DNA of 55,800 nucleotides, taken from the IMG/VR virus record IMGVR_UViG_3300030618_000020, positions 1-55,800 of that record. One strand, 5' to 3'. The notes under the pieces were generated by a model. It worked only from the letters and a program-made list of their open reading frames with translations, had not been told where the DNA came from and searched no databases. This DNA is from a virus. The translations under genes were made by a program, and so were the position numbers. Positions 45,307 through 53,162 of the stretch are shown here, piece after piece; within the stretch, counting starts at the first letter, position 1, and every line of letters starts with the position of its first letter.

Positions 45307-46125
45307 ATGACTATTTATCAGTGTAAATATTGCGATTTCACTACCAAAAATAAAAGCTCTCTTGGTGGTCACTCATCTAACAATCATAGTACAATCGACT
45401 ACACTGTGCTTAGTATAGCAAACCATTCAAAGAAACAAAAGAATATTTTAAAGTATAACGAAAATCCAAAATTGTGTCTTGAATGTAAGAGTATTATACC
45501 ATATGATAAAAGACATGATAATAAAGATTTTTGTTCACATTCATGTAGTGCTACTTATAAAAATAGAGCAGGTTGTTCGAATCCAGAAAAATCTAGAGTA
45601 TCTGCATTAAAAGCAGTTAATAAAGATTTAAATGTTGTTGGAGATTTTTGCTACATCAAAGATTCACCAACAAATTTTAAAGTTACAAAAGAGAAAACTT
45701 TATGTCTAATTTATTTCAAACAGTGTGTTAATTGTGAAAAATATGAAGCCAGAAAAACATCAATATCATCAAAATTGTGCATGACCTGTCGCAATTCTAT
45801 ATTCTTCGAGTATAGAAAATTATGCAATTTTTCTTTCAACATTGGTGATTTTCCAAAAGAGTTTAATATTAAACTTCTCTCAGAATGTAAAATGTTCAAT
45901 CCAAAAAATAATCAAAATGGATTATCTAGAGATCATAAGTTTTCAATTTATGATGGATTTCTGTTAAAAATTTCACATAACATAATGAAACATCCTGCAA
46001 ATTGCGCCCTTATGACCCAACGAGAAAATATGAAGAAATTTAGTCGATCTTCTATTACCATTGAAGAATTGAATCAAAATATTAGAATTTGGAATGACAA
46101 ATATGGTAGTGATAACCAGAGTTAA
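45307..46125 (+). CDS. HNH-type homing endonuclease with zinc fingers
   Basis: 272 residues. A C2H2-like finger (YQCKYCDFTTKNKSSLGGHSSNNH), a second cysteine cluster (CLECKSII...CSHSC) and a third (CVNCEKYE...CMTCRN) precede an HNH-like end: LSRDHKFSIYDGF ... KHPANCALMTQREN. The last 22 bases are antisense to the 3' half of a tRNA with anticodon CAT. AT-rich and opposite to its neighbours, so mobile. Confidence 0.8.
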   Translation: MTIYQCKYCDFTTKNKSSLGGHSSNNHSTIDYTVLSIANHSKKQKNILKYNENPKLCLECKSIIPYDKRHDNKDFCSHSCSATYKNRAGCSNPEKSRVSALKAVNKDLNVVGDFCYIKDSPTNFKVTKEKTLCLIYFKQCVNCEKYEARKTSISSKLCMTCRNSIFFEYRKLCNFSFNIGDFPKEFNIKLLSECKMFNPKNNQNGLSRDHKFSIYDGFLLKISHNIMKHPANCALMTQRENMKKFSRSSITIEELNQNIRIWNDKYGSDNQS

Positions 46126-46178
46126 ACTGGTCTAATCTTCCTTATGAGGGAAGTGCATGATCGCTCTGCCATATCACC
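46104..46178 (-). tRNA. tRNA with anticodon CAT (Met or lysidine-type Ile)
   Basis: Acceptor GGTGATA/TATCACT (G1-U72 wobble), A-CCA, anticodon stem CTTCC/GGAAG with loop CTCATAA. T loop TTTAACT is unusual. Overlaps the endonuclease 3' end in antisense. Met versus Ile cannot be told by eye. Confidence 0.75.
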
Positions 46179-47310: not shown

Positions 47311-47973
47311 ATGGATATTTATTCAAAATTTCTAAACAACAAATACACTAATCTATATTTCATTTTGATCAAGCATTTTAACGGCTCTGAATATGGAGAA
47401 AAGCATCATATTTTACCTAAGAGTATGGGTGGAAATAATTCTTCTGAAAATATAACAAAAATTCCAGCTAGAGTCCATTTCATTCTTCATCGTCTTTTGG
47501 TTAAAATGACAATAGGTAGTGATAAATCTAAGATGTATCGGGCACTGTGGGCGATGTCGGTACCACCAAGAAAGTGGAACAATAGAACATATAAAGTAAC
47601 TTCTCATGTATACACTATTGCAAAGTCAGAATATTCAAAATTTATGAAAGAAAATAATCCTATGTTTAGAAAAGATGTAATCGAACGATGGATGACTACT
47701 AATACTGCACTTGGTTGGACTAATGCATCACCAAAAGGAATACGAAGACCGGGACAAAGTGCAGTTTGTAAAAGGCGAAATGAGATATATTGGAAGACTA
47801 GAAAACTACCAATATTAGAATTGGTGTGCCAAGAATGTAATTCAAATTTCAAAACAAATCTAACAAAACGAATGTTTTGTAGTAATACTTGTTCTGGTAA
47901 ATTCAATAATAGAAAAAGAAAGCGCAGTTGTTTGGATAACAAGGAACAACTGCCAAATCCCAGCTTGGTTTAA
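47311..47973 (+). CDS. HNH homing endonuclease with C-terminal zinc finger
   Basis: EKHHILPKSMGGNNSSENITKIPARVHFILHRLLV is an HNH motif, and CQECNSNFKTN...MFCSNTCSGKF is a zinc finger. The last codons are antisense to the 3' part of the tmRNA coding piece: its TAA overlaps the tag stop codon region at 47970-47973. Confidence 0.85.
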   Translation: MDIYSKFLNNKYTNLYFILIKHFNGSEYGEKHHILPKSMGGNNSSENITKIPARVHFILHRLLVKMTIGSDKSKMYRALWAMSVPPRKWNNRTYKVTSHVYTIAKSEYSKFMKENNPMFRKDVIERWMTTNTALGWTNASPKGIRRPGQSAVCKRRNEIYWKTRKLPILELVCQECNSNFKTNLTKRMFCSNTCSGKFNNRKRKRSCLDNKEQLPNPSLV

Positions 47974-48243
47974 GCAGCGAGTGCCATATCCCAAGAAGTA
48001 TCATTTGCTGCTGCAATTACTTGCTTGATCTTTTTAACGAGAGTTCTTCTCGGGTTGTCCATTTTCTCTAATAACCTGCCAGTCGAATCCTTTTAGGCCC
48101 ATCAGAAACATCCTCTATTGCATTAATCCTCGCAAACTGTCTTGGGCTATGACAGTGAAGATGTTTTTGGTGGACCTATCGGCATTGAAGCCGAGTCCTA
48201 GCCGCTTTCGATACACTTCATCCAACCGTTCTCTACAACTTAA
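47925..48243 (-). ncRNA. ssrA: Circularly permuted (two-piece) tmRNA
   Basis: Minus strand, 5' to 3'. Acceptor piece (about 48243 to 48168): T-arm-like TCGGC-TTCAAT-GCCGA, then TAGGTCC-A-CCA. Intervening part (48167-48101) with an ACTGTC/GACAGT hairpin and AAACATC/GATGTTT pairing. Coding piece from 48100: GGGCCTA, pairing with TAGGTCC (one G-U), then AAGGATTCGACTGG, the tmRNA D-loop signature. A CGAGA/TCTCG hairpin follows, then the tag frame AANDTSWDMALAA ending in TAA (47970-47972). A 9-bp hairpin GCAGTTGTT/AACAACTGC (47925-47955) may end it. The tag and TTCGAC motif are diagnostic of tmRNA. Outer ends are estimates. Confidence 0.85.
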
Positions 48244-48245
48244 AG

Positions 48246-48319
48246 TGGACCCCTCGACAGGAATCGAACCTGCACCAGATGCCTTCGTAGGGCTTCGGCT
48301 GTAATCCAACAGCAAGGGG
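48246..48319 (-). tRNA. tRNA-Arg(ACG)
   Basis: Acceptor CCCCTTG/CGAGGGG, T-CCA, loop CTACGAA. One 28-42 mismatch. Confidence 0.8.
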
Positions 48320-52353: not shown

Positions 52354-52394
52354 ATAAATATAAGTGTGCATCGCGTATTGAACGTACCATGCAC
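52353..52394 (+). promoter_or_regulatory. Homing-endonuclease cassette leader
   Basis: CATAAATA (52353-52360), stem GTGCAT (52366-52371) with ATGCAC (52389-52394), CGCG after the 5' arm, TCTAC after the 3' arm, then TTAAGGAG. Intact although the gene it drives is broken. Confidence 0.7.
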
Positions 52395-52428
52395 TCTACT
52401 TTATCTTACTTAAGGAGTCAAGCAGGCA

Positions 52429-53083
52429 TGCGTATTTATAATCAAAGATTTTGTTTGTTTTGTTCAAAACCATTACCATATAAAAATAGATATGGCAAAT
52501 ATTGTAATCATGTATGTTCGGCTACAGCGGTTAATAAAACTAGAAGTCTTAATGGATATAAACCAAACAGTTTAAAAACTAGCGCATCTATGGTCGAATA
52601 CCACAGGAAAATCCAAAGCAATACATTAAGAAAATTATATATTCAGATAAACCATTAATAAGTTTTATTCGGTGTTGTAAACAATGCCTGAAATATTTTA
52701 AGTTGGATAATAGCAAATCTATGAAATTGTTTTGTGAGAATTGTAAACCAAATATTGAAATGTACAGGGCTGAATGTAGGTTTGATTTTGTTGTCAATCA
52801 TTATCCTAACGATTTTGATCTAAGTCTTATTGAAAAATATGGTTGGTATATTCCATATGGGAGAGCTAGTATCAATCGTGCAGTCAATATGACTGGCGTA
52901 TCGCGTGATCATCTATATTCTGTATACGATGGATTTTCTAATAAAATTGATCCAAAAATTTTAAAACATCCGGCAAATTGTCGCTTAATGATTCATTCCG
53001 AAAACTCTAGAAAACATAAGACATCAAGTATAACACTAAATGAATTGAAAGAACGTATTAAAATTTGGGATTTAACACATTGA
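52429..53083 (+). pseudogene. HNH-type homing endonuclease with frameshift
   Basis: First frame: MRIYNQRFCLFCSKPLPYK...YCNHVCSAT, a zinc-finger N-terminus like the 45307 protein, stopping at 52658. The rest continues in the -1 frame (CCKQCLKYFK..., GVSRDHLYSVYDGF...KHPANCRLMIHSEN) to 53083. The two parts together align with the 45307-46125 endonuclease. A single indel near 52600-52650 explains it. It ends 3 bp from tRNA-Gln. Confidence 0.8.
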
Positions 53084-53086
53084 ATT

Positions 53087-53162
53087 TGGCTAACGGAAAA
53101 GGGTTCGAACCTCTAACCTCTTCGTTCAGAGCGAAGTGCACCACCAATTGTGCTATCCGTTA
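53087..53162 (-). tRNA. tRNA-Gln(CTG)
   Basis: Acceptor TAACGGA/TCCGTTA, G-CCA, anticodon stem CTTCG/CGAAG, loop CTCTGAA. Confidence 0.85.

What the first reader, a model, noticed from the sequence alone, without database searches (positions are those of the whole stretch)
47925..48243. Circularly permuted two-piece tmRNA encoded by a phage
Seen: on the minus strand an acceptor piece ends TAGGTCC-A-CCA. It precedes an intervening stretch that folds on itself, then a piece starting GGGCCTA (the matching acceptor strand) with the TTCGAC signature and the tag AANDTSWDMALAA-stop. Known: permuted tmRNAs occur in alphaproteobacteria, cyanobacteria and some betaproteobacteria, made by cutting a precursor. 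Inference: the phage captured a permuted gene, and the host may belong to one of these groups. I do not recall how common this form is in phages. The 3' end of an HNH endonuclease runs through the distal part of the coding piece in antisense.
Basis: partly seen in the sequence, partly recalled or inferred. Interest (0 to 1): 0.9.

Follow-up and report, generated by a model that had tools for sequence, protein, structure and literature searches.

The report
Phage-borne two-piece tmRNA gene
A large phage carries a complete, rearranged copy of the gene for tmRNA, the RNA that frees stalled ribosomes and tags their unfinished proteins for destruction; it is real, but this two-piece form is already known from phages and turns out to be common among them.

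Summary
On the minus strand at about 47911-48245 there is a permuted (two-piece) tmRNA gene. It matches Rfam tmRNA_permuted at 82.7 bits (cut-off 47), and ARAGORN calls it independently, with tag AAANDTSWDMALAA. Three Gammaproteobacteria loci just over the cut-off (48-49 bits) are one-piece genes, so 82.7 lies well above cross-matching. Acceptor stem, encoded CCA, the G3-U70 alanine signal, T arm, inner P2 helix, open tag frame and a 3' hairpin are all present; acceptor and inner P2 stems covary across 91 permuted genes. It abuts a tRNA-Arg gene in a 20-tRNA array on a 55.8 kb fragment of an uncultured large phage.

It is not new in kind. Permuted tmRNAs were reported in 53 of 18,146 phage genomes in 2022, and scans here gave 124 distinct virus genes. 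No SmpB was found in 17 virus records, so the RNA most likely works with host SmpB. Oddities: a 6-base T loop (also in three other virus genes), and HNH endonuclease genes running head-on into RNA-gene 3' ends.

The parts
48246..48319 (-). tRNA-Arg(acg) directly upstream, CCA encoded; its 3' processing would leave a 5' end at 48245 for the acceptor piece (inferred)
   Evidence: ARAGORN; sequence
48168..48245 (-). acceptor piece of the two-piece tmRNA (5' end inferred; modelled core 48168-48227)
   Evidence: RF04321 positions 1 onward start at 48227; sequence
48223..48227 (-). GGTTG, outer P2 strand, pairs with CAACC 48053-48057
   Evidence: RF04321 alignment
48197..48204 (-). inner P2 strand (5'-GCGGCTAG-3' region), pairs with CTGGCAG 48076-48082; 6 of 7 pairs form here
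   Evidence: covariation in 91 genes
48179..48194 (-). T arm, 5 pairs, with a 6-base loop TTCAAT (48184-48189) instead of the usual 7
   Evidence: sequence; T-arm lengths of 91 genes
48168..48178 (-). acceptor 3' strand TAGGTCC, discriminator A, encoded CCA; holds U70 of the G3-U70 pair
   Evidence: sequence
48101..48167 (-). intervening sequence, 67 nt, folds on itself and holds the acceptor strands together; expected to be cut out
   Evidence: fold; length
47911..48100 (-). coding piece (3' end inferred from the T-rich tail)
48094..48100 (-). acceptor 5' strand GGGCCTA, 7 pairs with TAGGTCC including G3-U70
48082..48087 (-). TTCGAC D-loop signature
47970..48014 (-). tag frame AAANDTSWDMALAA and stop TAA
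   Evidence: ARAGORN; VAAND homology in X1 and Bhz51
47924..47953 (-). 3' hairpin, 9 pairs, loop CCTTGTTATCCA as in the beta_tmRNA consensus, followed by T-rich GCTTTCTTTTTCT (47911-47923)
   Evidence: beta_tmRNA alignment; fold
47311..47973 (+). HNH homing endonuclease gene, head-on to the tmRNA; last 18 codons overlap its 3' hairpin and tag end
   Evidence: phrog_655 E 2.9e-27; Pfam HNH_5 just under cut-off

Best explanation
It is a functional permuted tmRNA gene of a phage lineage. One transcript carries tRNA-Arg, acceptor piece, intervening sequence and coding piece. Host tRNA-processing enzymes (RNase P at GGGCCTA, 3' trimming at the encoded CCA) remove the intervening part, leaving two RNAs held together by the acceptor and P2 helices. 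Host alanyl-tRNA synthetase charges it through G3-U70, host SmpB takes it to stalled ribosomes, and the ribosome switches to the tag frame, adding Ala plus AAANDTSWDMALAA, whose ALAA end should be read by ClpXP-type proteases. This would keep ribosomes free while host mRNA is being degraded. Shown: sequence, structure, open tag, relatives. Inferred: transcription, cutting, charging, use of host SmpB, benefit to the phage.
For: RF04321 82.7 bits against a cut-off of 47; three Gammaproteobacteria loci at 48-49 bits are one-piece by ARAGORN. Seven of seven acceptor pairs with G3-U70 as in 89 of 91 genes; six of seven inner P2 pairs; covariation: acceptor 6.74 pairs against at most 5.96 in 500 reshufflings of strands between genes, P2 6.41 against at most 5.33. 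Open tag frame and 3' hairpin with the beta_tmRNA loop. No SmpB match in this record nor in 17 other virus records.
Against: No RNA data. The gene is divergent (82.7 bits against 110-147 for most phage relatives), with one broken P2 pair and a 6-base T loop, so partial decay cannot be ruled out. No close relative exists to test for selection. SmpB could lie on the missing part of the genome.
Confidence: 0.78

Rival explanations
1. It is a decoy or competitor: it folds and is charged, but mainly titrates host SmpB or replaces the host tag, changing which proteins are destroyed, rather than restoring rescue.
For: A tmRNA-like RNA of phage DS6A lacking a tag frame inhibits the endogenous tmRNA (reported in PMC11915505). 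Tag sequences vary widely among phages, as expected if the tag itself is under selection.
Against: The tag frame is intact, with a normal -ALAA end and stop, which a pure decoy would not need.
Confidence: 0.12
2. It is a decaying passenger: a tmRNA captured by an ancestor, now drifting, its 3' end overrun by an HNH endonuclease gene.
For: Lowest-scoring group of phage permuted tmRNAs; A-G mismatch in P2; 6-base T loop; HNH frame overlaps the 3' end.
Against: All motifs needed for charging, rescue and tagging persist despite strong sequence divergence; the HNH family match ends before the tag, and the 3' hairpin is complete.
Confidence: 0.08
3. It is a chance arrangement of tRNA-like pieces in a tRNA array.
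For: It lies in a dense tRNA array, and tRNA T arms share motifs with tmRNA.
Against: E 2.2e-14 over the full model, an independent ARAGORN call, no ARAGORN tmRNA call in 60 shuffled windows, and alignment to annotated phage ssrA genes.
Confidence: 0.01

Closest known systems
Permuted tmRNA of Xanthomonas phage X1 (OQ427096, 121009-121337) and ssrA of Stenotrophomonas menderaviruses (Bhz51, OR797040, 67979-68352)
   Same: Permuted order, GATGAAG...ATCGAAAG in the acceptor piece, 14-residue tags beginning xAAND; X1 also shares the run after TTCGAC (GGCAGGTnATTAG). They lie in or next to tRNA arrays of large phages.
   Different: Different tag ends (VAANDADYSVARYA, VAANDDSYTVRIAA), intervening sequences of 126 and 56 nt, 7-base T loops; overall sequence similarity is modest and does not make a firm clade.
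Two-piece tmRNA of phage Melnitz and relatives (PMC9004378)
   Same: Complete permuted tmRNA in a lytic phage genome; noted there in 53 of 18,146 phage genomes, 50 of them marine or aquatic.
   Different: Melnitz has an alphaproteobacterial-type gene next to a glutamine riboswitch; no riboswitch reached Rfam's cut-off in this window.
Rfam beta_tmRNA (RF01850)
   Same: 3' hairpin with loop CCUUGUUA; full-length weak match.
   Different: 40 bits, below the cut-off of 84, so not a member of that family.
Virus-contig permuted tmRNAs with tags ending -DMALAA (L012, L028, L088-L118)
   Same: Tag end -DMALAA and permuted form.
   Different: ANDxxYDMALAA tags without the extra leading residues, and a resume context (GTAAACGCAAACGA) unlike this one.

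Membership tests
tmRNA_permuted (RF04321) | Score above the curated cut-off over the whole model | tested here: met
   82.7 bits against 47, model positions 1-213 of 213
tmRNA_permuted (RF04321) | Acceptor piece encoded before the coding piece, both in one gene | tested here: met
tmRNA_permuted (RF04321) | Mature RNA is two pieces made by cutting a precursor | not testable with these tools
   needs RNA ends; the 67-nt intervening fold is consistent
tmRNA in general | G3-U70 in the acceptor stem (alanine identity) | tested here: met
   present here and in 89 of 91 permuted genes
tmRNA in general | Tag reading frame ending in a proteolysis signal and stop | tested here: met
   AAANDTSWDMALAA-stop; that it acts as a degron was not tested
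tmRNA in general | Works with SmpB | not testable with these tools
   no SmpB gene in the record or in 17 other virus records; host SmpB assumed
beta_tmRNA (RF01850) | Score above the curated cut-off | tested here: not met
   40 bits against 84
alpha_tmRNA type | T arm of the form GGGGGCGGTACCC seen in the alphaproteobacterial genes inspected | tested here: not met
   window has TTCAAT in the loop; bacterial examples

The most novel reading that the evidence does not exclude
Permuted tmRNA may be a long-lived phage gene in its own right, passed between large phages independently of the form used by their hosts, with its own variants (6-base T loop, phage-type tags), and used in hosts that make one-piece tmRNA, for instance as a version that escapes host or defence nucleases aimed at the host RNA.
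Probability: 0.15. Interest if true: 0.6.

Novelty: new member of a known kind. Interest (0 to 1): 0.28.

Why it matters
It adds a divergent member to the phage two-piece tmRNAs and shows that the kind is common: 124 distinct virus genes were collected from a few pattern scans. It also warns against reading a phage's host from the form of its tmRNA, since phages of gammaproteobacteria carry permuted genes while the class almost lacks them. Whether phage tmRNAs rescue ribosomes or compete with the host's is an open question that cultured phages such as the menderaviruses could settle.

Tried and rejected
DNA search for close relatives of the tRNA-array region in 50,697 phage records: none; tmRNA-region searches gave only short or tRNA-Arg matches, and the Acidovorax phage ACP17 hit was dropped as chance (38 bases at E 1, inside annotated coding genes). 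A pattern from the stretch shared with X1 found nothing in virus contigs, and the flanking 307-residue protein has no relative there. Reading the extra Ala codons as a GCA repeat expansion was dropped when X1 and Bhz51 showed VAAND at the same place. Host assignment by gene content failed: 5 to 10 window proteins match each of six large phages at roughly 25-60% identity, without a clear best. Very short intervening sequences (3-5 nt) first looked phage-specific, but bacterial genes have them too. The promoter and terminator scan found no terminator on the minus strand, as its rule excludes the 12-base loop. A script to measure intervening lengths in bacteria returned nothing, so the sequences were read by eye.

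Full report
What is there. The minus strand at 48245-47911 reads, in order: an acceptor piece ending TAGGTCC-A-CCA, a 67-nt intervening sequence, and a coding piece beginning GGGCCTA with TTCGAC, a 14-codon tag frame and a 3' hairpin with a T-rich tail. Rfam's tmRNA_permuted model matches over its full length at 82.7 bits, E 2.2e-14. ARAGORN calls a permuted tmRNA independently and calls none in 60 Markov-shuffled copies of the window. As a yardstick, the same model rang in 184 of 276 Gammaproteobacteria, but over the cut-off in only four: one real permuted gene at 141 bits, and three at 48-49 bits that ARAGORN reads as one-piece. In Alphaproteobacteria it was over the cut-off in 53 of 57.

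Anatomy. All seven acceptor pairs form, including G3-U70, the alanine signal (identity role: established knowledge). Across 91 distinct permuted genes, viral with a few bacterial, G3-U70 is kept in 89, and the acceptor strands pair better with their own partner (6.74 of 7) than with one from another gene (highest of 500 reshufflings 5.96). The inner P2 helix does the same (6.41 against at most 5.33) and forms six of seven pairs here. That control does not remove shared ancestry. The window's T loop is 6 bases; three other viral genes (L079, L080, L151) share a T arm shortened by one base. The intervening sequence folds on itself in continuity with the acceptor stem. The 3' hairpin loop CCTTGTTATCCA follows the beta_tmRNA consensus, although that family's cut-off is not reached (40 bits of 84).

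Setting. The record is a 55.8 kb IMG/VR virus contig, probably part of a larger genome, with 20 complete tRNA genes by ARAGORN and phage genes such as a head maturation protease, DNA ligase and nicotinamide phosphoribosyltransferase. tRNA-Arg ends with CCA at 48246, next to the acceptor piece. No SmpB match lies in the record or in 17 other virus records; of the records in which a permuted tmRNA was sought as well, all had one. Most of these are not shown to be complete genomes.

Relatives. The permuted model also rings in cultured phages: menderavirus Bhz51, Rhodobacter phage RcXuper, Stenotrophomonas phage DLP_6, Xanthomonas phage X1, Synechococcus phage BUCT-ZZ01 and Acinetobacter phage BUCT628. 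By summed local alignment score the window's gene is nearest to virus contig L019 and X1, then L236, L258, L197 and Bhz51; the alphaproteobacterial genes rank lower. The order is not a tree, and the placement is a lead rather than a result. Gene content did not assign the phage.

Literature. PMC9004378 reports a two-piece tmRNA in phage Melnitz and 53 two-piece calls in 18,146 phage genomes; PMC11915505 describes the merged permuted model and lists 79 phage tmRNA sequences of all forms. The kind is therefore known.

How it works. Most likely it works as tmRNA does: cut by host tRNA enzymes, charged with alanine, brought by host SmpB to stalled ribosomes, tagging unfinished proteins. Everything after the sequence itself is inferred. 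The rivals are a competitor of the host tmRNA and a decaying passenger.

Verdict.

Noticed in passing
window 45307-46125 (+), 47311-47973 (+), 52389-53083 (+): Three plus-strand endonuclease-type genes or remnants run head-on into the 3' end of a minus-strand RNA gene: tRNA-Met 46104-46178 (22-bp overlap), the tmRNA, and tRNA-Gln 53087-53162 (3-bp gap). The first and third share family phrog_23051 (HNH-like residues read by eye); the third looks frameshifted.
   Followed up: partly
L012, L028, L088-L118: Permuted tmRNAs with tags ending -DMALAA are frequent in virus contigs (33 loci matched one pattern), while the same pattern gave 3 loci in 84,980 prokaryote species genomes, two of them one-piece.
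   Followed up: partly
e.g. L090, L091, L150, L258; also bacterial L314, L352: Many permuted tmRNAs have an intervening sequence of only 3-5 nt between CCA and GGG; how so short a spacer is cut out is unclear.
   Followed up: partly
L314 (a Gammaproteobacteria genome): One gammaproteobacterial genome has a permuted tmRNA at 141 bits and no one-piece tmRNA over the cut-off, with an alpha-like T arm; possible gene transfer.
   Followed up: partly
window 48184-48189; L079, L080, L151: T arm one base short, giving a 6-base T loop closed by a C-G or T-A pair instead of G-C, in four viral permuted tmRNAs.
   Followed up: partly
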